Assembly: GCF_003352045.1 (NCBI RefSeq)
Contig: NZ_CP025815.1
Span: forward strand, 3,162,001-3,226,000
Direction: 5' to 3'
DNA: 64,000 nucleotides
Origin: Sulfitobacter sp. JL08
Lineage (GTDB): Bacteria > Pseudomonadota > Alphaproteobacteria > Rhodobacterales > Rhodobacteraceae
Position 1 is the stretch's first letter, and the number at the start of each line of letters is the position of its first letter. A program made the translations under genes and the position numbers. Below, one piece after another: positions 10,956-28,321 of the stretch. The notes under the pieces were generated by a model. It saw only the letters and a list, made by a program, of their open reading frames with translations, had not been told where the DNA came from and did not search any database.

Positions 10956-11945
10956 TTACAGCGCCACCTGCGTCGCCAGCCCCTGTTCATGGGCCAAACG
11001 CGCAGCCACGGACGCCACGGCCAGATCCTGAAGCCCGACGCCTGTACCGTCGAACAATGTGATTTCGTCATCGCTGCTGCGACCCGCGTGATCACCGTTG
11101 ATAACAGCGCCGATAGGGGTGATGTCGCTTTCATTGATCATGCCGGCACCAAAGGCGTGTTGCGCCTCGCCCAGCGAAATCGATTGTGCAATTTCGTCAG
11201 TGAACACTGTTGCTGCCGCAACCAGATCGGCATCAACCTCTTGTTTGCCAACGGTATCGGTTCCCATGCAGGCGATATGTGTGCCGGGTTTGATCCAGTC
11301 TTTTTTCATCAACGGCTCGAACGCCGAGGTGATGGTGATGATCACATCGGCCTGTGCGCCCAGATCTTCGCGACTGACGGATTGGAATTCCAGCCCAAGT
11401 TCGACTGCGACCTTTTCAAGGTTCGGCAACATTTCGGGATGGAAATTCCACGCCACGACCTTTTCGAAATCGCGCTGTTCTGCGGCGGCGCGCAATTGAA
11501 AGGTGGATTGATGCCCTGCCCCGACCATGCCCAGAACCTTGCTGTCCTTGCGCGCCAGATGCGCAATGGAAACCGATGACGATGCAGCCGTGCGCACCGC
11601 GGTCAGGTAATTGCCACCCACAAGCGCGCGCAATTGCCCCGTATCGGGATCGAACAGGAAAATCGTCGATTGGTGGTTGGTCAGGCCCTTGGCCGCATTG
11701 CCCGGCCAGTAGCCGCCCGATTTCACGCCCAGCGCCATACCCGCCTTGTCAAAGCCCGATTTGAAGCCGTAAAGCGCGTCAGCATAGCCGATCGCCTCGC
11801 GGATGACCGGAAAGTTGTAGGCATCACCGCGCGCCATTGCGCCAAAAACGTCTTCAACGGCACGGAACGCATCGTCGCGGCCGATAACATTGGCGCAAAC
11901 GTCTTCGGATACGATCAGCAGACCGTCGGATGTGGGGCTGTTCAT
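10956..11945 (-). CDS. bhcD: Iminosuccinate reductase BhcD
   Basis: 329 residues of the ornithine cyclodeaminase/mu-crystallin family, with the NAD(P)-binding segment VLGMVGAGHQSTFQLRAA. In the beta-hydroxyaspartate cycle BhcD reduces iminosuccinate to L-aspartate, regenerating the amino donor for BhcA. The call rests on family plus position as the last gene of an intact bhcABCD cluster, in the order known from Paracoccus denitrificans. A GGAG ribosome site precedes the ATG at 11945. It converges with the phosphotransferase gene, leaving 6 bp between the stops. 66 bp separate it from bhcC. Confidence 0.95.
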   Translation of the reverse strand: MNSPTSDGLLIVSEDVCANVIGRDDAFRAVEDVFGAMARGDAYNFPVIREAIGYADALYGFKSGFDKAGMALGVKSGGYWPGNAAKGLTNHQSTIFLFDPDTGQLRALVGGNYLTAVRTAASSSVSIAHLARKDSKVLGMVGAGHQSTFQLRAAAEQRDFEKVVAWNFHPEMLPNLEKVAVELGLEFQSVSREDLGAQADVIITITSAFEPLMKKDWIKPGTHIACMGTDTVGKQEVDADLVAAATVFTDEIAQSISLGEAQHAFGAGMINESDITPIGAVINGDHAGRSSDDEITLFDGTGVGLQDLAVASVAARLAHEQGLATQVAL

Positions 11946-12011
11946 GGGGGAATTCTCCGTGGATATTCAAAGGGTCGGCTGCGCGGCCCAAAGCAGCGCA
12001 GCCACGATGCG

Positions 12012-13178
12012 TCAGTAGGCTTTGCCGCGGGCCGACACCGGCCAGAGGGTTTCAACCTTGCCGTTGCGCACACCGACATACCAGTCGTGGACATTGCAGG
12101 TCGGGTCGCAATGGCCCGGCACCAGTTTCAGCTTGTCATTGACCTTCAACACACCATCAGGGTCGGCGACTACACCATGTTCATCGGAACATTTCACGTA
12201 TTCCACATCGTCGCGGCCATAGATGGTGGGCAGACCGCTGTCGACCGATTGCGCCTTCAGTCCCGCATCGACGATCGCCTTGTCCGCCTTGGCGTGGGAC
12301 ATGACGGATGTCAGGATAAACAGCGCGTTTTCCCATTCGTTTTCGTCGATCCGTTTGCCGTCCTTGTCCAGAATGCGGCCATAATCCGCATCCATGAACG
12401 CATAAGATCCGCACTGTAATTCGTTGAAAACACCACCGGAATTACTCTCGAAGTAATACGAGCCCGTCCCGCCGCCACCGACGATATCACAGTCCAGACC
12501 TGCTGCTTTCAGCAGATCGACGCTTTCGCGCACCTGATCAATTGCGATCTGGGTCTTGCCGCGGCGGTCTTCGTAGGAATCCATATGCTGCATCGCGCCC
12601 TGATAGGCTTGAATGCCCGCAAACTTCAGGCCATCCGCTGCATCAATCGCCTGTGCCAGTTCGACAACAGGTTGCCCGTACTGAACGCCACAGCGCCCCG
12701 CGCCCACATCGATTTCAACCAGACATTCGATCTCGGTTCCGTGCTTGAGGGCGGCTGCGGACAGATCGGCCACATTGTCGATATCATCGACACAGCAGAT
12801 CGTGCGCGCGCCCAGTTTCGGCAGGCGGGCCAGACGATCGATCTTTTCAGGCTGGCGCACCTGATTTGATACCAGCACATCCTTGATCCCGCCGCGCGCG
12901 AACACTTCTGCCTCGGATACTTTCTGACAGCAGACACCGCACGACCCGCCCAGACTTTCCTGAAGCAGGGCGACATCCACCGACTTGTGCATTTTTCCGT
13001 GCACGCGATGCCGCATTCCGTGAGATTTAGCGTAATCGCCCATTTTCTTGATGTTGCGTTCCAGCGCGTCCAGATCCAGCACAAGGCAGGGGGTCTGGAT
13101 GTCGGCCTCGTCCATGCCGATGGTCGCGGGGATGTCGTATCCAACTTCAAGATCGTCAAAGTTCACTTGCTTGTTCAT
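12012..13178 (-). CDS. bhcC: beta-Hydroxyaspartate aldolase BhcC
   Basis: 388 residues of the D-threonine-aldolase-like PLP family (alanine-racemase-type fold). The N-terminal TPCLVLDLDALERNI strand and the PLP-lysine segment HRVHGKMHKS (Lys62) are present. C-terminal residues HCDPTCNVHDWYVG provide the His/Cys metal ligands usual in this family. BhcC condenses glycine and glyoxylate to (2R,3S)-beta-hydroxyaspartate. A strong Shine-Dalgarno (TAAGGAGGAC) precedes the ATG at 13178, 12 nt after bhcB. Operon order bhcA-B-C-D supports the call over a generic D-threonine aldolase. Confidence 0.96.
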   Translation of the reverse strand: MNKQVNFDDLEVGYDIPATIGMDEADIQTPCLVLDLDALERNIKKMGDYAKSHGMRHRVHGKMHKSVDVALLQESLGGSCGVCCQKVSEAEVFARGGIKDVLVSNQVRQPEKIDRLARLPKLGARTICCVDDIDNVADLSAAALKHGTEIECLVEIDVGAGRCGVQYGQPVVELAQAIDAADGLKFAGIQAYQGAMQHMDSYEDRRGKTQIAIDQVRESVDLLKAAGLDCDIVGGGGTGSYYFESNSGGVFNELQCGSYAFMDADYGRILDKDGKRIDENEWENALFILTSVMSHAKADKAIVDAGLKAQSVDSGLPTIYGRDDVEYVKCSDEHGVVADPDGVLKVNDKLKLVPGHCDPTCNVHDWYVGVRNGKVETLWPVSARGKAY

Positions 13179-13190
13179 GTCTTGTCCTCC

Positions 13191-14153
13191 TTAGCCCTTG
13201 ATCCAGGGCAGTTTATCCAGATCGACGTTGCCGCCGGTTATGATCACGCCAACCTTTTTGCCGGCAAACACTTCGGGGTTTTTCAGAATCACGGCCAACG
13301 GAACGGCGCAGCTTGGCTCCATGACGATTTTCATCCGTTCCCATGTCAGCTTCATAGCGGCGATAATCTCGTCCTCGCTTGCGGTCAGAACATCGGTCAC
13401 GAAATTGGACACATAGTGCCACGTGTTTTCCTTTAACGGCACCTTCAGCCCGTCCGCGACCGTTACAGGCGCATCATCTGCAATGATGTGCCCCGCTTTG
13501 AAACTGCGATAGGCATCATCGGCCTGTTCCGGTTCTGCCGCGAAAATTTCGACATGCGGCGCTATATTGGACAATGTCAGGCACGTGCCCGAAATCATGC
13601 CGCCGCCGCCGATGGGGGCGACAATGGCGTCCAGATCCTCGACCTCTTGCATCAGCTCCAGCGAACAGGTCGCCTGCCCCGTAATCACGCGCGGGTCATT
13701 GTAGGGATGCACGAATTCGCCACCGGTTTCCGCCTGAACGCGGGCAAACACCTCTTCCCGGCTGGATGTGGATGGTTCGCATTCGGTGATTTTGCCGCCA
13801 TATCCGCGCACAGCCGCTTTTTTCGCATCCGGAGCGGTGCGCGGCATGACCACATTGCACGGTATTCCACGCTGTCCTGCCGCATAGGAAAGGGACAGCG
13901 CATGATTGCCCGAGGAATGGGTACACACGCCCTTTGACGCCTGCGCGTCGCTTAACCCGAAAACTGCATTGCAGGCACCCCGCACCTTGAACGCACCGGC
14001 CTTTTGGAAATTCTCGCATTTAAAGTACAGCCGCGCGCCGGTACGCTCGTTCAGATATGTCGATGTCAGAACAGGGGTGCGGTGAATATAGGGGCGTATG
14101 CGTTCATGCGCCCCTTTCACGTCCTCGATGGTCAGGTCTGGTGTATCAAGCAT
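13191..14153 (-). CDS. bhcB: beta-Hydroxyaspartate dehydratase BhcB
   Basis: 320 residues of the threonine/serine dehydratase family (PLP fold type II). The PLP-lysine lies in FQKAGAFKVRGA (Lys56), SSGNHALSLSYAAG forms the substrate/phosphate loop, and a GGGGMISG loop holds the PLP phosphate. BhcB converts beta-hydroxyaspartate to iminosuccinate with loss of water. It starts 3 nt after the bhcA stop and is followed at once by bhcC. Alone it would be annotated as a threonine ammonia-lyase; the operon decides the call. Confidence 0.95.
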   Translation of the reverse strand: MLDTPDLTIEDVKGAHERIRPYIHRTPVLTSTYLNERTGARLYFKCENFQKAGAFKVRGACNAVFGLSDAQASKGVCTHSSGNHALSLSYAAGQRGIPCNVVMPRTAPDAKKAAVRGYGGKITECEPSTSSREEVFARVQAETGGEFVHPYNDPRVITGQATCSLELMQEVEDLDAIVAPIGGGGMISGTCLTLSNIAPHVEIFAAEPEQADDAYRSFKAGHIIADDAPVTVADGLKVPLKENTWHYVSNFVTDVLTASEDEIIAAMKLTWERMKIVMEPSCAVPLAVILKNPEVFAGKKVGVIITGGNVDLDKLPWIKG

Positions 14154-14156
14154 GGG

Positions 14157-15347
14157 TCAAGCCGCCGATTTAAGCGCGCTGTCGCGCGAGTGTCTGAAAT
14201 AATTCTGTGCTGCGGTCACGCCCGTGCCCAGAGTGATCGGATAATCCAGATCGGCCATCGCCATTTCGATAGTGGCCAGACCGGACAGTACCATGACATC
14301 GGTCAGCATACCCAGATGACCAATGCGAAACGCCTTGCCGTTCATTTCGCCCAGCCCGATGCCAAAGGACACGCCGTAAGCCCTGAACGCATGCTCAACC
14401 AGCGCGTGGCTGTCAAACCCGTCCGGCACATAGATCGCGCTGACCGTATCGGAGTAAAGATCGGGCGATTGCGCAACCAGGTCCAGACCCCAGGCGGCGA
14501 CAGCGCGGCGCACCCCTTCGGCAAGACGGTGATGACGCGCATAGACGTTATCAAGCCCTTCCTCGAACAGCATGTTCAGGCTTTCGCCCATGCCATAGAT
14601 CAATTGCAGCGGCGGGGTATAGGGAAAGCCCCCCGTTGAATTGGCCTTCATCATGTCGCGGAAATCAAAGAACGTGCGTGGCAGATCGGCCGTTTCCATA
14701 TGCGCCAGCGCCTTGGGGCTGACGGCCAGAATTGCCATGCCCGTGGCCAGCATAAAGCCCTTTTGCGAGCCGGCGATCGCTATATCCACGCCCCAATCAT
14801 CCATTTCAAACGGCATCGACGCCAAAGAACTGACACAGTCCACGAACAACATCGCCGGGTGATCGGCTGCATTCATCGCACGCCGCACCGCTGCGATATC
14901 CGACACAACGCCCGTTGCCGTTTCGTTATGCGTGACCAGTACCGCCTTGATCTTGCGATCTGTGTCCGCCTGCAAAGCAGCCTGAAACCTGTCGGCAGGT
15001 GCGCCCCCACCCCATTCGCATTCGATGATCTGAACGTTGAGACCGTGGCGCTGACACAGATCGATCCACCGGTGCGAAAACATGCCGTATCGCGCGATAA
15101 GAACCGTATCGCCTTTGGACAATGTATTGGTAACAGCCGCTTCCCATCCCCCCGTTCCGCTTGAAGGAAAGGTAATGATCTGACCCGCGGTCGTGCCGAA
15201 AACGGCCTTGGTTTTTTCCAGCACCGGCGCGAATGTCTTGACGAAGTCGGGCGAACGGTGATCCTGCGACTGCACCTGCATCGCACGGCGCAGACGATCC
15301 GGAATATTGGTTGGTCCGGGAATGAACACAGGGTTCTGATCTGACAT
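14157..15347 (-). CDS. bhcA: Aspartate-glyoxylate aminotransferase BhcA
   Basis: 396 residues of class V aminotransferases, similar to serine-glyoxylate aminotransferases. The N-terminus FIPGPTNIPDRLRRAM and the PLP-lysine in IAGSQKGFML (Lys196) are typical. BhcA transfers the amino group from aspartate to glyoxylate, giving oxaloacetate and glycine, the first step of the cycle. A GAGGAG-type ribosome site precedes the ATG. It is the first gene of bhcABCD and is divergent from bhcR across an AT-rich regulatory region. Confidence 0.96.
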   Translation of the reverse strand: MSDQNPVFIPGPTNIPDRLRRAMQVQSQDHRSPDFVKTFAPVLEKTKAVFGTTAGQIITFPSSGTGGWEAAVTNTLSKGDTVLIARYGMFSHRWIDLCQRHGLNVQIIECEWGGGAPADRFQAALQADTDRKIKAVLVTHNETATGVVSDIAAVRRAMNAADHPAMLFVDCVSSLASMPFEMDDWGVDIAIAGSQKGFMLATGMAILAVSPKALAHMETADLPRTFFDFRDMMKANSTGGFPYTPPLQLIYGMGESLNMLFEEGLDNVYARHHRLAEGVRRAVAAWGLDLVAQSPDLYSDTVSAIYVPDGFDSHALVEHAFRAYGVSFGIGLGEMNGKAFRIGHLGMLTDVMVLSGLATIEMAMADLDYPITLGTGVTAAQNYFRHSRDSALKSAA

Positions 15348-15418
15348 CTTACCAACTCCTCGTTTCGGTCAGAACAAGATACCCGATCCTGTCTTTTTCA
15401 CAATTTTCTCAAAAACAT

Positions 15419-15522
15419 TTTTCATTTTGAAAATTTTTACTTATTGCGATGTTTTTATTGCCTTTTTATATTTTCATTTTTGTCAAAATATCTTTATTGA
15501 AAATATTTTTCAAAAATGAAAA
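15419..15522. promoter_or_regulatory. bhcA/bhcR intergenic operator region with TTTTCA/TGAAAA inverted repeats
   Basis: The 211 bp between bhcA and bhcR are sharply AT-rich compared with the genes. I see TTTTCA-TTT-TGAAAA (15419-15433), TTGAAAA-TAT-TTTTCAA (15497-15513) and TTTTCA-N4-TGAAAA (15507-15522). There is also a 12-bp inverted pair, TTTTCATTTTTG (15471-15482) with CAAAAATGAAAA (15511-15522). IclR-type regulators often bind short palindromes of this kind, so these are plausible BhcR operators controlling both directions. Binding is inferred. Confidence 0.6.
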
Positions 15523-15558
15523 CATGACTCAACCGTGATTTCAGCAAGGATTCGCACC

Positions 15559-16383
15559 ATGTCAGAACCTGTCAGAAAACAACGGGGGCGGCCCAAATCA
15601 CAATTTACCGCAAGCTCTGCTTCGACCTTGCAGTCACTGGATCGTGCATTGGGTATTCTGGATGCCCTGTCGCGCCAGAATGCCGCGTCGCTGACTGATG
15701 TTGCCATGCGTCTGGGCATTCCTACCGCCACCACGCACCGCATTCTGACCACATTGCAAAAGCGCCGGTTTGCCGAATTTGACGAAGACACCCAAACCTG
15801 GATGGTCGGCATCGAAGCCTACCGTGTCGGCACGTCTTTTCTGAAGCGCACTAACTTGCTGGACATCAGCCGCCCTGTAATGCGCGCGCTGATGCAGTCG
15901 ACAGGAGAAACTGCCAATCTGGCTGTGCCTGACGGATCCGAGGTTGTCTTTATCGGGCAGGTTGAATCGCAAAACCCGGTGCGTGCATTCTTTGATCACG
16001 GGACACGCACGTCCATGCACGCATCCGGCACCGGCAAGGCGATCCTGGCGGCATTGGACGAGTCAAAGGTGGTGAAACTGATGCAATCCGCCGGACTTGA
16101 GGAATTCACGGCGCGCACACTGGTAACGCCGACCTTGCTGCTGGATGATCTTTCCAGAACACGCGCCCGCGGCTGGTCATTTGACCGCGAGGAAAGGTTT
16201 GAAGGCATGTCCTGCATCGGCGCCGCAATCTGTGATGCAACGGGCGAACCAATTGCCGGAGTTTCGATTTCGGGACCCAGCAACCGGTTTGGTGATCGTC
16301 AGGTTGACGGTTTTGGCGCACAGGTGGCACGCGCGGCGGCTGAAATCAGCGCCAGCATCGGCGGCGCACCGGTCCGCGATTAG
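15559..16383 (+). CDS. bhcR: IclR-family regulator BhcR
   Basis: About 274 residues: an N-terminal winged helix (LDRALGILDALSRQ ... TDVAMRLGIPTATTHRILTTLQKRRF) and a C-terminal IclR effector domain (GQVESQNPVRAFFDHGTRTSMHASGTGKAILAAL is the typical loop). In P. denitrificans BhcR senses glyoxylate and controls bhcABCD. I chose the ATG at 15559 (MSEPVRKQRGRPKS), which gives the usual basic N-terminus; an ATG at 15535 would add eight residues. Divergence from the cluster it controls fits the known arrangement. Confidence 0.93.
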   Translation: MSEPVRKQRGRPKSQFTASSASTLQSLDRALGILDALSRQNAASLTDVAMRLGIPTATTHRILTTLQKRRFAEFDEDTQTWMVGIEAYRVGTSFLKRTNLLDISRPVMRALMQSTGETANLAVPDGSEVVFIGQVESQNPVRAFFDHGTRTSMHASGTGKAILAALDESKVVKLMQSAGLEEFTARTLVTPTLLLDDLSRTRARGWSFDREERFEGMSCIGAAICDATGEPIAGVSISGPSNRFGDRQVDGFGAQVARAAAEISASIGGAPVRD

Positions 16384-19507: not shown

Positions 19508-20521
19508 TCAAACTCTCAAGACGCCACCGGAAAGTGCAAACAATTCGATCGATGCCGCGCCCGGTATCTGCACCCGGCGACCGCCTTCCTGAAAATCATC
19601 CATCGACATGGGCCAGATCGTGCCGGGCCAGCGGATTTCCATTTCAAGCTTACGTGGACGATAGACGGCAGTGTAAAGCGTGCCAAATCCGGCCGAAAAC
19701 GCGGTGGAATACAAGGGCGGCTTTAAAAAGGCGTCGATGAATTTATCCTGCGGATCGCGGTGCAAGGTCAGCCGTTGCAACAAGTATCTTTCGCGTTCCA
19801 CAGTCGAGGTGAAACGCGCGTGGCTGATCCATTCCACTGTTTCCTGGTGGTTGGTGGCGACCGCGGCATGGGTGATCATGGCGGGTCTGTCCGGCCCCAT
19901 CATGGCCGTCAGATAGTTCCGCTTTGCATCAAGAACCGTCACATTATAGCTCATGTGGGTTGGTATCCGCGCCAGTGCCGCACCCGCATCCTGCGCGGTT
20001 TCGCAGGTTTGCAGCACGTAACGCAGGATCAGCGGTACGCCAAACCCGTCACCGACAACCCGCCGCCCGCCAAACGTTAGCGAAACGGCAAGGCCCGCGT
20101 CGTTCATGCCATCCACCAAACCCCACAAGCCGTCGCTGGTGCCGATCACCCGCCGTCCCTGCCATCGCGTTTTAAGCAACAGGCTGTCAAAGGCATTCGG
20201 ATTGTAATCGTAGTTGCGGACAAGAACTGGTTCTTTCCCCGGCCAGATCGCCTGCGAGCATCCTGCAAGATAGGGCGGCGGGCGATAAAAACTAAGGAAC
20301 CGTGCAGCGTGGTCACTGCCGCCCGCCAGTTCACAGAGGTTTTCATATAATGGCACGATTTCCGGCATGTGCGTTGCCAGAGCGGCCCGGCTTTGGGCGT
20401 AGGTTGGTCGCACGCCTTCGCCTTCTTTCAACCACCAACGCTTGTAGTCGGGCCAGTATTCAGCAAAAAGCCCGGCCCATTTCGGGCCGGGTTGATCTTC
20501 TGATATGGCACGCCACAGCAT
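19508..20521 (-). CDS. C45-family Ntn acyltransferase/hydrolase
   Basis: 337 residues resembling acyl-CoA:6-aminopenicillanate acyltransferase (peptidase C45) proteins, which self-cleave before a cysteine that becomes the N-terminal nucleophile. The candidate is Cys88 in LAGCSQAIW, followed by the typical VLVRNYDYNP strand and GLWGLVDGMNDAGLAVSLTFGG. No signal peptide, so cytosolic. It starts 18 nt after the ATP-grasp stop and is the last gene of a four-gene minus-strand operon (nitrilase, decarboxylase, ATP-grasp, this gene). The amide it makes or breaks is unknown. Confidence 0.82.
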   Translation of the reverse strand: MLWRAISEDQPGPKWAGLFAEYWPDYKRWWLKEGEGVRPTYAQSRAALATHMPEIVPLYENLCELAGGSDHAARFLSFYRPPPYLAGCSQAIWPGKEPVLVRNYDYNPNAFDSLLLKTRWQGRRVIGTSDGLWGLVDGMNDAGLAVSLTFGGRRVVGDGFGVPLILRYVLQTCETAQDAGAALARIPTHMSYNVTVLDAKRNYLTAMMGPDRPAMITHAAVATNHQETVEWISHARFTSTVERERYLLQRLTLHRDPQDKFIDAFLKPPLYSTAFSAGFGTLYTAVYRPRKLEMEIRWPGTIWPMSMDDFQEGGRRVQIPGAASIELFALSGGVLRV

Positions 20522-20539
20522 TGATTGATGGTTCCCGGG

Positions 20540-22000
20540 CTACATGATCTTGAACGCAGGATCTGCCAATGCCGGCCCCGCTTCGGCCACCGGCAGCGGC
20601 CGACCCGCAACGGTTTGTTTGATCCCGTGTATCCACTTCTTGGCGCGTTCATTCAATTGGAAACCTTTGGTCATCGACCGGCCACGGGTGACCAGAATGC
20701 CGATATCGGCCCCTTCATAGCGGTAATCACCCGGTTGCAGGATACGCAGGAAAAACGCTTCGTTTTCGGATTCGACGGCGCGGCGGTGGTAATCGAAACG
20801 GTCAAACACGACACGCCCGTCTTCCAGCATCTTGTAGATACCGGTTTCGGGGGATTGCGTGCAGATATCCACGCTGTCATCCGTGTGCTTGATCACCATC
20901 TGGCTCCAGCTGTCAATCATGTCGGCATTGGCCCAGCGCGAGTTCAGTTCATCCACATCCAGCTGGAATTTCTTTTTCGAGAATTCAAGCAGGTGGAACA
21001 GGAACAACGGGGCGTCCGCATGGGCAAAAGCAGCGTGGTTTGTCATTGATGACGCGCCGGTGATACGCGGGTTCAGTTCACCCAGCCACAAGTCACCGGT
21101 TTTTTTGTCGATCAGGAAATCCAGTTCGAAATAGCCACGATAGCCTTCCTTGCGCAGTTGTTCGCCGAATTTGAATGTCAGTTCGCGCGCTTTCTGGCGG
21201 ACCTTGGGGGGAAAGGCGGTGGGCAGGATTTCATTGCCGCACCATCCGCCACGGTAAGGGGTCAGTTCATTGAACCCGACAAGTTCGGTCATCAGCGGGC
21301 CGACAATGGTGCCTTCCTTGGTGGCGCAGGCCTCAATCGCGGAACCGCGGCAATCAATACGCTTCATGATCTTGATCTCGCCCTCGCCGACGATCTCGTG
21401 CTCGTGGCGCAAGAAATCGGCTTCGGACTTGATGAAAAACGTCGTGTGGCCGCTATCCCCGAAGGCAGATTGCAGCACCAGGTCATGCCCGATTCCGGCC
21501 TTTTCACAGGTCTTTTTCAGATCCGCATAGCTTTTCACTTCGGCCAGAACATTGGGCACGGATGGCACACCCGCCTTGTTGCCGATGCGGACAGTTTCGA
21601 TCTTGTTGTCCATCGAGGTGCGCAGCTTGGCCTTGGGAAACCAGACGTCCGCGCCCAGTTCCTTGGACAGGCGTTCCGTTTCCTCATCAAACATCAGAAA
21701 CACGAACTTTGGCTTGCCGCCGCGGCGCTTGATGAAATCGATCACCTCTTTGTGCTGCAAAAGGTAATTGTTGATGTCTTCGATCGACTGGAATTCGGCA
21801 TGTGGCTGTTCGGACGGGCAAAACACGTTGGGATGCTTGCCGCCGTAGCAGTCGATGTAGCAGATGTATTTGAAATGGCGCACCCATTCATCCAGCCCCA
21901 GCAGGTTGAAGTTCGTGGCCGAAATGAAATAGATCGGATCTTCGTTGCGGTGAAAGAACCGGCGGATTTCCGAGATGTTTTTAAGCACGGTCGCGGGCAT
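20540..22000 (-). CDS. ATP-grasp ligase (carboxylate-amine ligase type)
   Basis: About 486 residues. The ATG at 22000 follows AAAGGAAACC, a good ribosome site; the open frame continues upstream but that part overlaps the decarboxylase. The middle has ATP-grasp features: DNKIETVRIGNKAGVPSVP, a lysine-containing LVLQSAFGDSGHTTFFI loop, IKIMKRIDCRGSAIEACAT and the metal-binding YFELDFLIDKKTGDLWLGELNPRITGASS (Glu-Leu-Asn-Pro-Arg). It resembles biotin carboxylase or CarB-like ligases without a carrier or second domain. It starts 13 nt after the decarboxylase stop. I infer that it joins an acid to an amine; substrates are unknown. Confidence 0.82.
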   Translation of the reverse strand: MPATVLKNISEIRRFFHRNEDPIYFISATNFNLLGLDEWVRHFKYICYIDCYGGKHPNVFCPSEQPHAEFQSIEDINNYLLQHKEVIDFIKRRGGKPKFVFLMFDEETERLSKELGADVWFPKAKLRTSMDNKIETVRIGNKAGVPSVPNVLAEVKSYADLKKTCEKAGIGHDLVLQSAFGDSGHTTFFIKSEADFLRHEHEIVGEGEIKIMKRIDCRGSAIEACATKEGTIVGPLMTELVGFNELTPYRGGWCGNEILPTAFPPKVRQKARELTFKFGEQLRKEGYRGYFELDFLIDKKTGDLWLGELNPRITGASSMTNHAAFAHADAPLFLFHLLEFSKKKFQLDVDELNSRWANADMIDSWSQMVIKHTDDSVDICTQSPETGIYKMLEDGRVVFDRFDYHRRAVESENEAFFLRILQPGDYRYEGADIGILVTRGRSMTKGFQLNERAKKWIHGIKQTVAGRPLPVAEAGPALADPAFKIM

Positions 22001-22013
22001 ATGGTTTCCTTTT

Positions 22014-24752
22014 CTATTCGGCTGCGGTGGAAAGTTTTTTGTTCGATTTCCGGGCCAGCGCATCGGGTGTGAAAACGCGCAACCCCAGATCGGCGCGGTA
22101 GCCGTGGATTTCATTCACATCCAGCGCCCGCATAAAGGCGAGGATTTCTTTCGAGACGACCTGCCCCGGAACAAGAATGGGAAAACCCGGCGGATACGGA
22201 ATGATGAAGCTGGCCGAGACCACTTCCTCTCCGGCATCCAGCGCGTCCTGCAAACTGCCTTGCAGTTCCAGATAATCACAGTTCTTCTCGTCATAGCTGA
22301 GGTAATAAGCGGTGCGAATATCGCCTTCGGTTGTGACGCCATCGGCGCGGAATGCATCGTGGAAGCGGCTGAAATCGGGTAAGGGGGGCAGGTCTTCCAT
22401 CAGGTTCCGGACGCGCCGTTCAAACGACAGTTTTTCCATCCGGCTGGCATCGTCCAGCAAATCATCCAGACCTTTGGCAATTTCGACCAGAACCTCGATC
22501 AGATAGGCGACAGAGGACCGCGTCGTGCCGATATTCGTCATGAACAGAACCGTATTGCGCGAGGTCTTGTTGATCTGGATACCGTATTTATCCATCAGAA
22601 TATCGGTCTTGAACGTGTCACCATCCCAACCCGTTCCTCCGACAGACAGGGTAACGCGGGTGGCATCCAGCACGAATTCGTCTTTTTCCCAACAATCCCA
22701 AAGGTCGGTCCAGCCTTGTTCGGTATCATAATAGCTGGTCACGCCGCTTTCGCGGTGGGCTTCGGGGATCATGTCGCCTGCGGTCAGAACCTTGAAATAT
22801 TTCTGCAGCAAAGGATGATCCGAGATCGCACGGCGCATGGACATGGCCGCCTCGACCTGCCGCTGAACAAATTCAAAGCCTTCCAGTTCAACCTGCCTGC
22901 GCCCCACATCCAGTGATGCTATGATCTGGTAATTCGGCGACGTCGATGTGTGCGTCATGTATGCTTCGTGAAAGGATTGTTCGACCTCGCCTTTGAAATC
23001 CTGATCATTGACGTGGATCATCGACCCTTGCCGCAAAGACGTCAGCGTTTTGTGGGTGGATTGCGTTGCATATACCCGCACTCGCGCATAGGGCGGCGGG
23101 ATCAGGCGCGTCTTCAGAAGTGTTTCTTCATCCGCGTCCTTCAGCTTTTTCTGCTGTTTTTCATAGGCTTCTGCATAGTCGTTGCTGCGCAGCTTTGCGC
23201 GCAACGTATTGGCTGCGTTCATCGCGGTGCGCTGGCGGTAGGTCGGGCTAAAGCGCGCAAAAGCAAACCACGCTTCGTCCCACAGAAAAATCAAATCGGG
23301 CTTGATGGCCAGACATTCTTCCATGACGCGTTCAACATTGTAGACGATGCCGTCAAAGGTGCAGTTCGTCAGAAGCAGCATACGGACCTTATCAAGCTTT
23401 CCGGCCGCTTTCAGTTTCAGCAACTGATGCTTGATTTCGTGCAGGGGCACCGCGCCATACATGGAAAATTCGTCCAGCGGATAGCTGTCCAGATAGCAGA
23501 CCTGCGCCCCTGCCAGCACCATGCCGTAATGGTGGGATTTGTGGCAGTCACGGTCCACCAGAACGATATCACCGGGGCGAACCAGGGCCTGCACGACGAT
23601 CTTATTGCAGGTTGATGTGCCGTTGGTGGCAAAAAATGTCTGCTTTGAACCGAACGCGCGCGCCGCCAGTTCCTGCGCTTCCTTGATCGGACCATGCGGT
23701 TCCAGCAATGAATCAAGCCCGCCCGATGTGGCCGATGTTTCGGCCATGAAGATATTGGGCCCGTAAAATGCGCCCATATCCTGTATCCAGTGCGAGCGGG
23801 TGATCGATTTGCCGCGGCTGATCGGCAATGCGTGAAACACACCTGTCGGCTGGCGCGAATATTCGACCAAAGCGTTGAAAAACGGCGTTTTATTTCGCGC
23901 CTGAACACCGCGTAGGATGTTCAGATGCAGCTCCATGAAATCTTCCTGATTATAGAAAACGCGGCGGCATATCCCCAGATCAAGTCCCGCGATATCTTCG
24001 ACAGACCGTTCAGTGACCAGATAGGCATCAAGTTCGGGGCGCACCCGCGCAATAAGCCGGCACAGTTCCGGCCCGATATCTTCCGGTGCCATCGCCTCGA
24101 TCTGTTCCTGACCGCCCGCATTGTTCAGGTATTTTGTCAAAATCGGCTGGTCGACCTTGGATTGCAGGACCAATCCGGGGCGCACCACAATGGCCTGAAT
24201 ATTGTAGTTGAACAGAACCGCGATCAACGCGTCTTCGAGCGACGGCACCACTACGGCCTCGTAGATAAACGGATCTTCGGAGCGGCGCATGCGGTTCACG
24301 TTGCTTTTCAGCCAGCGTTCCTGATGTTCGTTGACCTGATCGACAATCAGGACCTCGAAATAGGGCTTGCTCATCGCGCGCGCTTCGGGGGACAGCATCG
24401 CCTCGTCGTCGTGCTCTTCGCTGTCGATCGAATCCCGTTCCAGCGGGATATGCCGGCGTCTGTAAGCCCCTGTCGTCAGGGCGCGTGTGACACGATTGAC
24501 CGCAAAAGACAGATCATCAAAGCTGCCATGCTCAAACTGACGGCGCATATGGTCAAACGCTGCCATCCCCGGAAAGGCCCAGTAGGGTTCTATCACCGCC
24601 AGAGAGACGAACAATTCTTCAATCGCGGCCTTGCACTTGTTGGCCTGTCTTTCAGAAGGCTTGCGCGCAAGGCTGGATGTGGCTTCGCGCAGGGCGCTCC
24701 ACCGATCCGAACGCAACTGGATCGCCGAATGATAGTCGTTCACAGAATGCAT
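22014..24752 (-). CDS. Orn/Lys/Arg decarboxylase, long form
   Basis: 912 residues, longer than the usual ~720-755 because of ~130 extra N-terminal residues. After the extension comes a wing domain (YFEVLIVDQVNEHQERWL), then the PLP fold type I core with FFATNGTSTCNKIV, VDRDCHKSHHYG, DEAW (492-495) and the PLP-lysine in QSTHKTLTSLRQGS (Lys568). It decarboxylates a basic amino acid (Arg, Lys or Orn) to a polyamine-type amine; which one cannot be told. It lies 72 bp after the nitrilase and 13 nt before the ATP-grasp gene, so the amine probably feeds those enzymes. Confidence 0.9.
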   Translation of the reverse strand: MHSVNDYHSAIQLRSDRWSALREATSSLARKPSERQANKCKAAIEELFVSLAVIEPYWAFPGMAAFDHMRRQFEHGSFDDLSFAVNRVTRALTTGAYRRRHIPLERDSIDSEEHDDEAMLSPEARAMSKPYFEVLIVDQVNEHQERWLKSNVNRMRRSEDPFIYEAVVVPSLEDALIAVLFNYNIQAIVVRPGLVLQSKVDQPILTKYLNNAGGQEQIEAMAPEDIGPELCRLIARVRPELDAYLVTERSVEDIAGLDLGICRRVFYNQEDFMELHLNILRGVQARNKTPFFNALVEYSRQPTGVFHALPISRGKSITRSHWIQDMGAFYGPNIFMAETSATSGGLDSLLEPHGPIKEAQELAARAFGSKQTFFATNGTSTCNKIVVQALVRPGDIVLVDRDCHKSHHYGMVLAGAQVCYLDSYPLDEFSMYGAVPLHEIKHQLLKLKAAGKLDKVRMLLLTNCTFDGIVYNVERVMEECLAIKPDLIFLWDEAWFAFARFSPTYRQRTAMNAANTLRAKLRSNDYAEAYEKQQKKLKDADEETLLKTRLIPPPYARVRVYATQSTHKTLTSLRQGSMIHVNDQDFKGEVEQSFHEAYMTHTSTSPNYQIIASLDVGRRQVELEGFEFVQRQVEAAMSMRRAISDHPLLQKYFKVLTAGDMIPEAHRESGVTSYYDTEQGWTDLWDCWEKDEFVLDATRVTLSVGGTGWDGDTFKTDILMDKYGIQINKTSRNTVLFMTNIGTTRSSVAYLIEVLVEIAKGLDDLLDDASRMEKLSFERRVRNLMEDLPPLPDFSRFHDAFRADGVTTEGDIRTAYYLSYDEKNCDYLELQGSLQDALDAGEEVVSASFIIPYPPGFPILVPGQVVSKEILAFMRALDVNEIHGYRADLGLRVFTPDALARKSNKKLSTAAE

Positions 24753-24824
24753 CGTTCATACTCCGTTTCCGGGGCAGGATACCGATGCAATCGGCCGGTT
24801 CAGGCGGCCGGAACAGAGCGATAT

Positions 24825-25805
24825 CTAGCCGCTGGATGTTTTTCCCAAGATCGGCGTTGCGCCGATATCGTGGACTGATGGTTGCGACTGGATGCCTGCC
24901 CCCGGTTCTGATGTCGGCACATCGACATGCAGCCCCGCACGCGATCCCTGTCGCGGAATTTCAAGCGGCCCCAAAGTATGGAGGAACGCATCGGTGCCGC
25001 TGGTGCGGTCATAGACAGGAAAGTCGCTGGACCGGTCGCGGAAACTTTTCAGAACCTGACCCAACCCTTTCATGCCGGTTTCGCGCTGGCGGCGCACCAT
25101 GCTCAGATCGACTTCGATCGGGAACATGTCTTCCTGCCCCGCTGACTGGTGCAGAACGGTCGACGACGGATCAATCACGCAGGATTTGCCGACGCCGCCC
25201 GCACCCAGACCGTTCACGTCAATCACATAACACTGGAACTGTGCCGCAGTCGCTCGCGCAATGGCCAGTTCCGCATCACGGTCGGTGGTGCCCGTCAGAA
25301 CGGGGTGCAACAACACCTCGGCGCCCATGCTGGTCAGCTGGCGTGTCGTTTCGGGGAACCAGATATCATAGCAGATCGACAGACCGAACCGCCCCACATC
25401 AGGCACATCGAACACGCAGAATTCAGTGCCCGCGGCGATCCCGGCCTCGTACGGGCGGAACGGGAACATTTTCGAATACCGGCGAATAATCTCGCCTTCG
25501 GGATTGATCACGACGGCGGTGTTGTAAATCTGGCCATCCGCAGCCTTCAGAAACATCGACCCCGGTATCAGCCAGACGCGGTGGCGCCGTGCCGCTTCGC
25601 AAAACCGGTCAAGCGTTTCGTTTTCCGGGGTCTGGGCAAAGCGATCCAGTGGACCGAAGGGCGCCAGTTCGCTGAACAGCACCATCTGCGTCCAGGGGAA
25701 TCGCGCCATCAGGATATCCAGGCGCTGGATCATACCGTCGACATTGGGCTGCAACGCGTTCACATACATCTGAACGCCCGCAATTGCGAAAGGGGTCATA
25801 CTCAT
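24825..25805 (-). CDS. Carbon-nitrogen hydrolase (nitrilase superfamily)
   Basis: About 326 residues. The catalytic triad is intact: Glu46 in FSELAPFGP, Lys112 in YSKMFPF and Cys145 in LSICYDIWFPE. The family hydrolyses amides, nitriles or N-carbamoyl compounds. The last ~50 residues (FPVYDRTSG onward) form an extra C-terminal tail. I place the start at the ATG at 25805 after GGAGA; another ATG is two codons later. It heads the operon with the decarboxylase, ATP-grasp and C45 genes. N-carbamoylputrescine amidase-type activity would fit a decarboxylase neighbour but is a guess. Confidence 0.88.
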   Translation of the reverse strand: MSMTPFAIAGVQMYVNALQPNVDGMIQRLDILMARFPWTQMVLFSELAPFGPLDRFAQTPENETLDRFCEAARRHRVWLIPGSMFLKAADGQIYNTAVVINPEGEIIRRYSKMFPFRPYEAGIAAGTEFCVFDVPDVGRFGLSICYDIWFPETTRQLTSMGAEVLLHPVLTGTTDRDAELAIARATAAQFQCYVIDVNGLGAGGVGKSCVIDPSSTVLHQSAGQEDMFPIEVDLSMVRRQRETGMKGLGQVLKSFRDRSSDFPVYDRTSGTDAFLHTLGPLEIPRQGSRAGLHVDVPTSEPGAGIQSQPSVHDIGATPILGKTSSG

Positions 25806-26170: not shown

Positions 26171-27559
26171 TCAGGCGGCCATTTGTTCCGCAACAGCTGC
26201 GCTCAGGGCGTCTTCGAAGATTGCAAGGCCTTCCTCGATCAGTTCATCAGACGCCGTCAGCGGCACCATGATACGCAGCGCGTTGCCGTGCATGCCACAT
26301 CCCAGCAGGATCAAGCCGCGTTTCAGCGCATGGGCGCAGATCGATTTGGCAAGGGCTGCATCAGGTTTGGCACTTTCGAAATCGGTAACGAATTCAACAG
26401 CAACCATCGCGCCCAGCCCGCGAATATCCCACATGCGGTAGGGTGCGGACCGTGCGCCAATCTCGGCGAAACGGGCGCGAAAATGTTCACCCATCTTGGT
26501 CGAGCGTTCCAGCAAACCTTCTTCGTCGATTGCCTGAATGGCAGCCAGTGCGGCGGCACACGCGACAGGGTTGCCACCATATGTGCCCCCCAGACCGCCC
26601 GGTTCCAGCGCATCCATGATGTCGGCGCGCCCGATCACACCGGCCAGAGGATAGCCCCCTGCCATGCTTTTGGCGACTGTGATCAGGTCAGGCACCACAC
26701 CGGAATGTTCGATGGCAAACCATGTGCCTGTCCGGCCAAATCCGGCCTGAACCTCGTCCGCGATCAACAGGATGCCGTGCTCGTCACAGATTTCACGCAA
26801 TGCCTGCATCATTTCGAACGGAACGGGAATGTAACCGCCTTCGCCCAGAACAGGTTCCAGAATGATCGCGGCCACGCGGCTGGGCTGGGCGTCTGTCAGG
26901 AACAGGTTTTTCAGCCCGATCAGCGCATCCTCGACCGTGATACCATCCCGCACGGACGGGAACGGTGCGCGGAACACATCGGCGGGGAACGGGCCAACGT
27001 CTTTCTTGTAGGGCGAAACCTTGCCCGTCATCCCAAGGGTCAGCAACGTACGACCATGATAAGAACCAGTGAACGCGATGATACCGGGGCGGCCAGTGGC
27101 AGCGCGCGCGATTTTAACTGCGTTTTCAACGGCTTCTGCACCGGTTGTCACCAAAAGCGTTTTCTTCGGATGGCTGCCCGGGGCCAGTTCGTTCAGCTTT
27201 TCTGCCAGCGCCACATAGGGCTCATAAGGCACAACCTGAAAACTTGTGTGGGTATAGTGATCTTCCTGCGCCTTGGCAGCGGCCACCACATTGGGGTGGC
27301 GATGGCCTGTATTCAAAACGCCGATGCCACCCGCGAAATCAATGTAGCGGTTGCCTTCAACGTCCCACAATTCCGCATTCTCGGCGTATTTCGCATAGAT
27401 CGGCGCCGCTGATGCAACACCGCGCGGCACCGCCGCATCACGACGCGCGACAAGGGATGCATTGGTTTGCGCCGACGGCGTCAGATCGGAAACAGCTACG
27501 ATTTTCGGTTTGTTCTTTACGGCGGATTTTGCAGTTTGTTTTTTAGCAGCACGGGCCAT
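26171..27559 (-). CDS. gabT: 4-Aminobutyrate aminotransferase (class III)
   Basis: About 462 residues. It moves the amino group of GABA (or related omega-amines) to 2-oxoglutarate, giving succinate semialdehyde. Class III hallmarks are [56 protein letters not shown] and the PLP-lysine in [16 protein letters not shown]. The ATG at 27559 has AAGGGA nine bases upstream. Oddly, ~30 Lys/Ala-rich residues precede the usual N-terminus ([17 protein letters not shown]). A XRE-cupin regulator is divergent, and a terminator follows the gene. The adjacent decarboxylase operon may supply omega-amines. Confidence 0.94.
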
Positions 27560-27590
27560 TGCAGGGTTCCCTTTCAAAAGAAATGTTCCG

Positions 27591-27634: not shown

Positions 27635-27757
27635 CGGATTTGGCCAAGATACCGTTTGGCGGCAGAATCCGACTGGTTCAAGCGCTTTGGCGCTGACCGC
27701 CTTGGGCCTTTTATTTAGCACATGTTTGTGCCACCTGTCAGGTCAAAGGAGTTTGCG

Positions 27758-28321
27758 TTGGATATTGGACAGAAAATCAAGATGATCCGAAAGGCACGCG
27801 GTCTGTCGCAACGGGAACTGGCATCGCGCGCTGGCCTGACCAACGGAACGATTTCCCTGATCGAAAAGAACAAGTCCAGTCCTTCGGTCGCGTCTCTCAA
27901 GCGGCTATTGGATGCCGTGCCGATCAGCCTGTCCGAATTCTTTTCCGACTTCGAGGTCGAAGACCGGGCCAAGATTTTCTTTCGCGCGGATGAATTCACC
28001 GAGATTGCCCCCCAGGGCCATGCCAACGGGTCGGCCGTCCTGTCTTTGCGACAGGTCGGCGATGCATCCCAGCATACGCTGCAGTTTCTGCATGAAAACT
28101 ACCCACCGGGCGGTGATACCGGACCCGAGCTTTTGTCACATCCCGGCGAAGAGGCCGGTATCGTCATTTCCGGCGAAATCGAGATTACGGTAGCGGATCA
28201 GGTTTGCGTGCTAAAAGCCGGGGATGGTTACCTTTTCGATAGCCGCCTGCCCCACCGGTTTCGCAACATCGGCAAAACCCATTGCGAGATCATGAGCGCA
28301 AGTACGCCACCAACTTTCTAG
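27758..28321 (+). CDS. XRE-family regulator with cupin domain (PuuR-like)
   Basis: About 187 residues: an N-terminal lambda-repressor-type helix-turn-helix (IGQKIKMIRKARGLSQRELASRAGLTNGTISLIEKNKSSPS) and a C-terminal cupin (PPGGDTGPELLSHPGEEAGIVISGEIEITV). This is the PuuR/SutR layout, often controlling putrescine or GABA catabolism. I chose the TTG at 27758, which has AAAGGAG six bases upstream; an ATG at 27722 would add 12 residues but lacks a ribosome site. It is divergent from gabT and so is its likely regulator. Its stop overlaps the convergent barrel-protein gene by 4 nt. Confidence 0.9.
   Translation: MDIGQKIKMIRKARGLSQRELASRAGLTNGTISLIEKNKSSPSVASLKRLLDAVPISLSEFFSDFEVEDRAKIFFRADEFTEIAPQGHANGSAVLSLRQVGDASQHTLQFLHENYPPGGDTGPELLSHPGEEAGIVISGEIEITVADQVCVLKAGDGYLFDSRLPHRFRNIGKTHCEIMSASTPPTF

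What the first reader, a model, noticed from the sequence alone, without database searches (positions are those of the whole stretch)
19508..25805. Nitrilase - decarboxylase - ATP-grasp - C45 acyltransferase operon: candidate undescribed amine/amide pathway
Four same-strand genes (72, 13 and 18-nt gaps) combine an amidase-type nitrilase, a 912-residue basic-amino-acid decarboxylase with a ~130-residue N-terminal extension, an ATP-grasp ligase and an autoprocessing-type C45 enzyme. All catalytic residues I can check are intact. A simple logic is: make an amine, ligate it to a carboxylate, then hydrolyse or transfer the amide. GABA aminotransferase and a PuuR-like regulator lie just beyond. I know no described pathway with this gene set.
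Basis: partly seen in the sequence, partly recalled or inferred. Interest (0 to 1): 0.78.

Follow-up and report, generated by a model that had tools for sequence, protein, structure and literature searches.

The report
Undescribed bacterial omega-amino-acid amide operon
Four neighbouring genes that travel together through many marine, soil and salt-loving bacteria appear to form an unassigned pathway around glutamate, GABA and related amino acids, and one of them belongs to the same enzyme family as a tuberculosis-bacterium protein of unknown job.

Summary
The four genes, their order and the 72/13/18-nt gaps are real, and this is no chance neighbourhood: in 198 genomes of the host family, nitrilase (NIT) and ATP-grasp (GRASP) hits fall in the same 36, C45 in these plus one, the decarboxylase (DEC) in 31 of the 36. 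The set reaches Beta- and Gammaproteobacteria. The core is GRASP-C45, usually with NIT; DEC is exchangeable. Some loci without DEC carry an arginine-to-GABA gene set, a lysine 2-monooxygenase homologue or 5-aminovalerate-type genes; others give no hint. Some ectoine-degradation operons carry the whole set. 51 of 111 loci also have a TAXI-TRAP importer, by one tested copy of glutamate type.

Two labels look wrong. GRASP ('biotin carboxylase') lacks the catalytic Glu (0 of 138). DEC has Asn in 118 of 118 where lysine/arginine decarboxylases have Glu526, so 'basic-amino-acid decarboxylase' is doubtful. Its close solved relative is M. tuberculosis Rv2531c, activity unknown.

Best reading: an omega-amino-acid (GABA, 5-aminovalerate) amide module. 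DEC makes GABA from glutamate, GRASP makes an amide, C45 and NIT cleave amides. Substrates are inferred. No published assignment was found in the searches made (open-licence library).

The parts
24825..25805 (-). NIT: nitrilase-superfamily amidase, proposed omega-amino-amide hydrolase
   Evidence: PF00795 114 bits; E46/K112/C145 117 of 117; next to a lysine 2-monooxygenase homologue in L067
22014..24752 (-). DEC: PLP decarboxylase of the Rv2531c family, proposed to act on glutamate or another non-basic amino acid
   Evidence: 9n0o/9n0n 828 bits; K568, D492, N728 118 of 118 each, R732 117 of 118
20540..22000 (-). GRASP: ATP-grasp amide ligase (proposed), annotated 'biotin carboxylase' in public records
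   Evidence: NF005096 761 bits; AlphaFold2 model pLDDT 88.4, BC/PurK fold; biotin-carboxylase Glu absent in 138 of 138
19508..20521 (-). C45: autoprocessing Cys N-terminal-nucleophile amidohydrolase/acyltransferase, predicted cleavage before C88
   Evidence: NF040521 184 bits; model pLDDT 92.6, best fold match isopenicillin N acyltransferase; C88 134 of 134
26171..27577 (-). Class-III aminotransferase, GABA type, upstream (start codon uncertain)
   Evidence: TIGR00700 561 bits, cut-off 506.65; a homologue within 12 kb of GRASP in 31 of 111 loci
27722..28321 (+). XRE-cupin regulator, PuuR-like but below the PuuR cut-off
   Evidence: NF007408 153.8 bits, cut-off 211; a homologue within 12 kb of GRASP in 29 of 111 loci

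Best explanation
The operon is a module for amides of omega-amino acids (GABA, 5-aminovalerate, possibly 4-guanidinobutyrate). DEC supplies GABA by decarboxylating glutamate, which relatives import through a TAXI-TRAP system (inferred). GRASP uses ATP to join the omega-amino acid to a partner as an amide (ATP-grasp class supported; reaction and substrates inferred). C45 cuts itself before Cys88 and then cleaves or transfers that amide (fold and nucleophile supported; substrate inferred). NIT hydrolyses the simple amide of an omega-amino acid to the free acid and ammonia (inferred from its place beside a lysine 2-monooxygenase homologue). The neighbouring GABA aminotransferase drains the free omega-amino acid. 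Shown: gene co-inheritance, folds, intact catalytic residues, contexts. Inferred: every substrate.
For: Co-occurrence: GRASP 36, NIT 36 (same genomes), C45 37, DEC 31 of 198 family genomes. In 111 loci with enough flank: C45 111, NIT 107, DEC 100; order NIT-DEC-GRASP-C45 in 94 of the 128 loci tallied. Pairwise distances of the four proteins correlate at r 0.84-0.92 over 55 loci. On a GRASP tree of 51 chosen rows the lack of DEC needs at least 5 changes. Loci without DEC: racemase, D-amino-acid dehydrogenase, 5-guanidino-2-oxopentanoate decarboxylase, ALDH and an agmatinase-family ureohydrolase, read as arginine to GABA, in Shinella and Thiofilum, which sit apart in the tree; a lysine 2-monooxygenase homologue beside NIT in L067; GABA-type aminotransferase, ALDH and a CoA-transferase nearest to the succinate-glutarate type in L068/L069. 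The TAXI protein of L051 keeps most of the glutamate contacts described for VcGluP. A DctA/GltP-like symporter (L133 scanned, L084 by eye) and GltI-like binding proteins follow C45 in L133 and L084, all below model cut-offs. DEC Asn728/Arg732 replace the Glu526 region of lysine decarboxylase. DEC paralogues sit beside AspT antiporters, two of three also with AspD.
Against: No activity is known for any member. The own genome has a Pyridoxal_deC-family gene (the family includes glutamate decarboxylases, recalled), so it may not need DEC for GABA. Five of the eleven DEC-less loci (Aquitalea L136, L148, L164; L066, L094) showed no GABA or 5-aminovalerate gene nearby, and the GABA aminotransferase is near in only 31 of 111. 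For Thiofilum and Shinella only the locus was seen; a DEC elsewhere is not excluded, and 'Roseateles' XES5, which has the Shinella-type locus, carries a DEC homologue 0.55 Mb away near arginase and ornithine-cyclodeaminase genes, which favours a basic amino acid. The ureohydrolase scores as agmatinase. Ectoine operons and a urea transporter beside DEC in L185 do not follow from GABA. In Rv2531c the Arg is Ile. GRASP and C45 would be a futile cycle if nothing happens in between. The window's operon has no adjacent TAXI-TRAP. Glu526 as a contact rests on docking and an earlier proposal (PMC5607190).
Confidence: 0.35

Rival explanations
1. Puu-like amine catabolism: DEC makes a diamine or agmatine from Lys/Orn/Arg, GRASP acylates one amine (probably with glutamate), host transaminases or oxidases and an aldehyde dehydrogenase oxidise the free end, C45 removes the acyl group to leave an omega-amino acid, and GABA aminotransferase finishes.
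For: PuuR-like regulator and GABA-type aminotransferase recur (29 and 31 of 111 loci); a class-III aminotransferase of the PRK07483 type is near in 26 of 111; glutamate transport and glutamate dehydrogenase genes nearby; DEC belongs to the Orn/Lys/Arg superfamily; a DEC homologue lies near arginase and ornithine cyclodeaminase in XES5.
Against: The Glu526 position of lysine/arginine decarboxylases is Asn in 118 of 118. GRASP-C45 persists at loci where no diamine-forming gene was seen: Shinella, Thiofilum, L067. NIT has no role in it.
Confidence: 0.25
2. A biosynthetic unit: GRASP and C45 build a small conjugate (solute, signal or metallophore part) from GABA, 5-aminovalerate or agmatine, and the catabolic neighbours only supply building blocks.
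For: C45 has the fold of isopenicillin N acyltransferase, a biosynthetic acyltransferase; compact operon.
Against: Importers (TAXI-TRAP, ABC, symporter) and catabolic genes are recurrent partners. I noticed no recurrent exporter or carrier protein in the lists read, but did not search for one.
Confidence: 0.15
3. DEC is an oxidative decarboxylase that turns Lys or Arg into the one-carbon-shorter amide, and NIT hydrolyses it: a PLP counterpart of the DavB/DavA pair.
For: In L067 a lysine 2-monooxygenase homologue stands next to NIT where DEC is missing.
Against: Leaves GRASP-C45 unexplained; L185/L186 have DEC but no NIT at the locus; DEC lost the basic side-chain Glu.
Confidence: 0.08
4. GRASP is a true carboxylase that activates bicarbonate and carboxylates urea, guanidine or an amine; C45 and NIT hydrolyse the product.
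For: Closest folds are biotin carboxylase and PurK; NCBI name 'biotin carboxylase'; urea-transporter-type gene beside DEC in L185 and L186.
Against: Catalytic Glu position is Ala, Cys, Ile or Val, never Glu, in 138. A biotin-carrier-like ORF was seen only near L066, beside its own carboxylase gene (by eye); carriers were not searched for systematically.
Confidence: 0.06
5. Chance neighbourhood of four unrelated genes.
For: None of the calls.
Confidence: 0.01

Closest known systems
Rv2531c family of PLP decarboxylases (PDB 9n0n/9n0o/9n0p)
   Same: Full-length similarity to DEC, 828 bits, including the N-terminal extension and Asn at the Glu526 position.
   Different: Activity of Rv2531c is not known (PMC12910592, passages); the Arg four residues on is Ile there; its gene neighbourhood was not examined.
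NCBIfam NF005096 (PRK06524, 'biotin carboxylase')
   Same: GRASP scores 761 bits against a cut-off of 684.
   Different: The family name implies biotin carboxylation; the catalytic Glu is missing in all 138.
C45 acyltransferases/hydrolases: isopenicillin N acyltransferase (fold match); insect Tan (recalled as a family member)
   Same: Fold, invariant Cys nucleophile; Tan hydrolyses a beta-alanyl amide whose synthase is Ebony (PMC10194958, passages).
   Different: Partner ligase here is an ATP-grasp enzyme, not Ebony; substrate unknown.
Puu pathway of E. coli (PuuA, PuuB, PuuC, PuuD, PuuE, PuuR)
   Same: Ligate, modify, hydrolyse logic; PuuR-like regulator and GABA aminotransferase nearby.
   Different: GRASP and C45 belong to other enzyme families than PuuA and PuuD (families of the latter recalled); no PuuB/PuuC equivalent in the four-gene set.
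DavB/DavA lysine route
   Same: NIT adjoins a lysine 2-monooxygenase homologue in L067.
   Different: In the window a PLP enzyme stands there instead, with two extra enzymes.

Membership tests
Biotin carboxylase | Catalytic Glu296 (E. coli numbering and role recalled) in the NxRxQVE motif | tested here: not met
   Alignment to pyruvate carboxylase puts GRASP A316 there; A 130, C 5, I 2, V 1 of 138
Biotin carboxylase | ATP-grasp fold | tested here: met
   Foldseek and VIA-align matches, Z 21.9-23.6 for the 50 rows shown
Orn/Lys/Arg decarboxylase of basic amino acids | PLP Lys in SxHK and Asp of the DEAW motif | tested here: met
   K568 and D492, 118 of 118
Orn/Lys/Arg decarboxylase of basic amino acids | Side-chain-binding Glu (LdcI E526, proposed by docking and an earlier proposal, PMC5607190) | tested here: not met
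   Glu in the three lysine/arginine decarboxylases printed; N728 in 118 of 118
Orn/Lys/Arg decarboxylase of basic amino acids | Activity on Lys, Orn or Arg | not testable with these tools
   Needs an assay
C45 Cys N-terminal-nucleophile hydrolase/acyltransferase | Family profile, fold and internal Cys nucleophile | tested here: met
   NF040521 184 bits, cut-off 85; fold; C88 134 of 134
C45 Cys N-terminal-nucleophile hydrolase/acyltransferase | Autocleavage before the Cys | not testable with these tools
   Residue before C88 is mostly Gly (113 of 134), else Ala, Ser, Asn, His, Asp
Nitrilase superfamily | Glu-Lys-Cys catalytic set | tested here: met
   E46/K112/C145, 117 of 117
Deaminated-glutathione amidase / N-carbamoylputrescine amidase | Score above the curated cut-off | tested here: not met
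   70.5 bits against 355 and 62.1 against 410.25
5-aminovaleramidase DavA | Sequence match to a DavA | not tested
   No DavA model or sequence was compared
Puu pathway | PuuA- and PuuD-family enzymes in the operon | tested here: not met
   The operon's ligase and hydrolase are ATP-grasp and C45; PuuA/PuuD elsewhere in the genome were not searched

The most novel reading that the evidence does not exclude
A widespread, undescribed bacterial GABA/omega-amino-acid amide cycle: an ATP-grasp ligase makes, and a Tan-like C45 enzyme plus an amidase unmake, an amide of GABA or 5-aminovalerate. It is fed by a new class of glutamate decarboxylase built on the Orn/Lys/Arg fold, the family to which M. tuberculosis Rv2531c belongs.
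Probability: 0.28. Interest if true: 0.82.

Novelty: new variant of a known kind. Interest (0 to 1): 0.63.

Why it matters
If the reading holds, two of those names are wrong and a missing branch of glutamate/GABA/lysine/arginine/ectoine nitrogen metabolism can be tested with four purified proteins. It also gives a first guess (a non-basic substrate) for the DEC family that includes Rv2531c, whose activity a 2026 review describes as not clarified (PMC12910592, passages).

Tried and rejected
Biotin carboxylase reading of GRASP: rejected on the missing Glu. Defence system: no PADLOC match at E 0.001 for the four proteins. Assigning NIT to a named nitrilase branch failed. Assigning GRASP a substrate from fold matches failed: biotin carboxylase and PurK tie, all distant. 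C45 against solved sequences gave only weak hits; the fold search gave the match. The L067 monooxygenase had no NCBIfam hit at E 1e-20; the match to 3we0 came. Literature: searches returned no papers; one search returned 211 and 39, and the 25 listed of each were judged by titles and abstract starts, none on this gene set; one search returned 7 papers naming Rv2531c, one (PMC12910592) read in passages. The structure paper of Rv2531c is not held. Searches served single points. PMC12344293 was seen in passages.

17 of 128 loci were left out of the 111 because the contig gave less than 5.2 kb upstream or 1.5 kb downstream of GRASP; 'near' means within 12 kb on the same locus. Plasmid loci L079-L093 were not in those counts. 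E-value limits of the family searches differ: GRASP 1e-10, NIT 1e-40, C45 1e-30, DEC 1e-60. Residue counts leave out sequences with stops, ambiguous letters, short length or weak match and include near copies, plasmid loci and, for DEC, the AspT-linked paralogues. A motif search found Asn in 107 of 117 DEC and missed 10; the alignment covers all. The 51 tree rows were chosen by me from 137.

DEC is absent genome-wide at E 1e-60 in G316, G322, G326, G387 and G466; for the other DEC-less loci only the locus was seen. L077 holds only the last part of GRASP (residues 302-487) with C45 and was kept in the counts. The acyl-CoA dehydrogenase of L068 looked to me like glutaryl-CoA dehydrogenase by eye; NCBIfam did not decide it. 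The join of L155 with the L067-L070/L184 clade in the GRASP tree is marked as a possible long-branch artefact.
Full report
WHAT IS THERE. NIT is a CN_hydrolase, DEC matches the Orn/Lys/Arg decarboxylase major domain in two stretches, GRASP has no Pfam match at E 0.01 but scores 761 bits against NCBIfam NF005096 (cut-off 684, name 'biotin carboxylase'), and C45 scores 184 bits against NF040521 (cut-off 85). Upstream lie a GABA-type aminotransferase (TIGR00700, 561 bits, above its cut-off) and an XRE-cupin regulator nearest to PuuR (153.8 bits, below the 211 cut-off).

IS IT MORE THAN CHANCE? Yes, though no formal test was run. In 198 genomes drawn from the host family GRASP occurs in 36, NIT in the same 36, C45 in these 36 and one more, G350, and DEC in 31, all among the 36. 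GRASP is patchy: 8 of 289 class genomes and 11 of 398 phylum genomes with a profile at E 1e-60. Of 128 loci with GRASP, 111 had enough flank; C45 is near in 111, NIT in 107, DEC in 100. The order NIT-DEC-GRASP-C45 on one strand was read in 94 of the 128. Pairwise distances of the four proteins correlate with r 0.84-0.92 over 55 non-redundant loci, as expected of a set inherited and moved as a unit. Loci from different collections overlap in genomes, so these counts are not independent.

THE CORE AND THE EXCHANGEABLE PART. GRASP and C45 are not parted in the 111 loci. NIT is missing in four (L077, L107, L185, L186). DEC is missing in eleven (L066-L070, L077, L094, L104, L136, L148, L164), and a GRASP tree of 51 chosen rows needs at least five changes of the DEC label. 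In the family sample DEC is absent from the whole genome in five of the 36; for the other loci only the locus was seen.

What stands nearby where DEC is missing is partly informative. (a) On plasmids of Shinella and Sinorhizobium sp. RAC02, and in Thiofilum flexile, which sits elsewhere in the tree, the trio lies with an amino-acid permease, a ureohydrolase (agmatinase TIGR01230 212 bits, cut-off 174), 5-guanidino-2-oxopentanoate decarboxylase (737 bits, cut-off 500), ALDH, D-amino-acid dehydrogenase (473.5, cut-off 383), a racemase (nearest ornithine racemase, 393, below 480) and RidA; I read this as arginine to 4-guanidinobutyrate to GABA (NCBIfam scores are for the Shinella copies). (b) In L067 NIT adjoins a close homologue of a solved L-amino-acid oxidase/monooxygenase (3we0, 958 bits), which I recall as the lysine 2-monooxygenase type whose product, 5-aminovaleramide, is hydrolysed by a nitrilase-family amidase. 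(c) In L068/L069 the trio lies with a GABA-type aminotransferase, an ALDH (nearest alpha-ketoglutaric semialdehyde dehydrogenase, 529 bits, below 770), a PuuR-like regulator, a DctPQM importer, a CoA-transferase nearest to the succinate-glutarate type (533 bits, below 750) and, in L068, an acyl-CoA dehydrogenase: to my eye the pattern of 5-aminovalerate catabolism, with no member above its cut-off. (d) Against this, Aquitalea (three loci), L066 and L094 show no GABA or 5-aminovalerate gene nearby.

With DEC present, Billgrantia and two unnamed relatives carry the set between the ectoine genes DoeA (656.6, cut-off 613) and DoeB (494, cut-off 402.7) plus an Lrp-type regulator on one side, and an ALDH and aminotransferase on the other (pathway from passages of PMC5924519). 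In XES5 a DEC homologue stands apart from the trio, near arginase and ornithine-cyclodeaminase genes, which speaks for a basic amino acid.

THE GLUTAMATE LINK. A TAXI binding protein and fused TRAP permease stand within 12 kb of GRASP in 51 of 111 loci (19 + 31 + 1). One copy (L051) was compared: it is a close relative of solved TAXI proteins including 8s4j (400.8 bits; that this is VcGluP is recalled, and an offset of 28 reproduces the residues named in the paper). Of the contacts named in passages of PMC11574862, Y45, S75, Q93, H123, E125, Y200 and G203 are the same, while S40 is Gly, Y46 Phe and M201 Thr (read by eye). Passages of PMC12344293 call glutamate a common ligand of TAXI proteins. 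In Plasticicumulans and Cupriavidus a DctA/GltP-like symporter and a GltI-like binding protein follow C45, all below model cut-offs where scanned. A glutamate dehydrogenase gene follows DEC in L162, a dehydrogenase of the Glu/Leu/Phe/Val type lies beside the set in R. leguminosarum, and a glutamate-synthase-family gene recurs in 22 of 111. The window's operon has no TAXI gene, but a TAXI-TRAP-UspA group with a PRK07483-like aminotransferase lies about 0.32 Mb away.

THE ENZYMES. DEC is full-length similar to Rv2531c of M. tuberculosis, 828 bits, whose activity is not clarified (PMC12910592, passages). It keeps the PLP Lys and Asp (118 of 118), but at the position of LdcI Glu526, present in the three lysine/arginine decarboxylases printed and proposed as a substrate contact (PMC5607190, passages), it has Asn in 118 of 118, and an Arg four residues on in 117 of 118; in Rv2531c the Asn is kept and the Arg is Ile. 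Paralogues 48.8-50.1% identical on Ensifer, Rhizobium and Rhodobacter plasmids sit beside aspartate-alanine antiporters, two of the three also with aspartate 4-decarboxylase. Both facts favour a non-basic, perhaps acidic, substrate. GRASP has the biotin-carboxylase/PurK fold (model pLDDT 88.4), but the catalytic Glu of biotin carboxylases is Ala (or Cys, Ile, Val) in all 138, and the Lys aligned in pyruvate carboxylase's glycine-rich loop is Gln in 138 of 138 (residue roles recalled). C45 folds like isopenicillin N acyltransferase, NAAA and acid ceramidase (pLDDT 92.6) with an invariant Cys88. NIT keeps its three catalytic residues but passes no named NCBIfam branch.

HOW IT MOST LIKELY WORKS. 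I commit to an omega-amino-acid amide module: DEC makes GABA from glutamate; GRASP joins an omega-amino acid to a partner at the cost of ATP; C45, after self-cleavage, cleaves or transfers that amide; NIT frees omega-amino acids from their simple amides; the GABA-type aminotransferase removes them. Arguments: where DEC is missing, several loci hold routes that also end in GABA or 5-aminovalerate; transporters point to glutamate; DEC has lost the basic-substrate Glu; and insect Tan, which I recall as a C45-family enzyme, hydrolyses a beta-alanyl (omega-aminoacyl) amide (its reaction: PMC10194958, passages). Shown are the association, folds and residues; the substrates are inferred. The main weakness is that GRASP followed by C45 looks futile unless something happens to the conjugate, or it is stored, between the two steps. 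The own genome also has a Pyridoxal_deC gene.

RIVALS. A Puu-like route (acylate a diamine, oxidise, deacylate) explains PuuR, GABA aminotransferase, the class-III aminotransferase after C45 and the XES5 context, but not the loci without a diamine-forming gene nor NIT. Biosynthesis of a conjugate, an oxidative-decarboxylase version of DavB/DavA, and a carboxylase reading of GRASP are kept at lower odds; the last fails a tested defining residue.

VERDICT. No paper assigning the set was found, within an open-licence library only.

Noticed in passing
window 10956-16383: Complete beta-hydroxyaspartate cycle genes: BhcD, BhcC, BhcB, BhcA all above NCBIfam equivalog cut-offs, and BhcR one bit below (349 against 350).
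   Followed up: yes
L112 (WNWL01000005.1): A contig titled Oceanobacillus sp. HTM 045 carries a Rhodobacteraceae-type copy (GRASP 81%); a contig of the same length belongs to G292, placed in the host family, so the record title is probably wrong.
   Followed up: partly
L081/L085 (NZ_CP084753.1): Plasmid of 'Roseateles sp. XES5' (marked unverified) has the Shinella-type gene order; probably a mislabelled Shinella-like strain.
   Followed up: no
L082 (NZ_CP016290.1): In R. leguminosarum Vaf10 DEC-GRASP-C45 lies right beside nifHDKEN with a peptide ABC transporter, an amidase and a serine hydrolase; no NIT gene is annotated in the stretch.
   Followed up: partly
L185 13871-16042, L186 3483-5657: A urea transporter fused to a peptidase M23 domain (domains scanned in L185 only) precedes DEC-GRASP-C45, and a similar outer-membrane-like protein follows, in two genomes of one genus.
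   Followed up: partly
Family genomes, e.g. G294:C47, G354:C14, G417:C180, G474:C1:690471, G415:C14: A second, 42-47% identical C45 gene occurs away from the operon in several genomes; its partners were not examined.
   Followed up: no
Own genome C1:1241664-1242293 and C1:1216340-1217440: A second AAT/C45-family gene lies about 24 kb from the only Pyridoxal_deC hit of the genome.
   Followed up: no
L069 5719-6246, L068, L107, L135: A glyoxalase/VOC-type protein (by eye) recurs near the set in these loci, and a small protein without Pfam match (126 aa in L070) recurs in L068, L070, L107 and L135.
   Followed up: no
L066 and L094; L131 and L068: 5-oxoprolinase-type genes (PxpA in L094 by NCBIfam, homologue in L066; HyuA/HyuB-like in L131 and L068 by eye and BLAST) stand near the set.
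   Followed up: no
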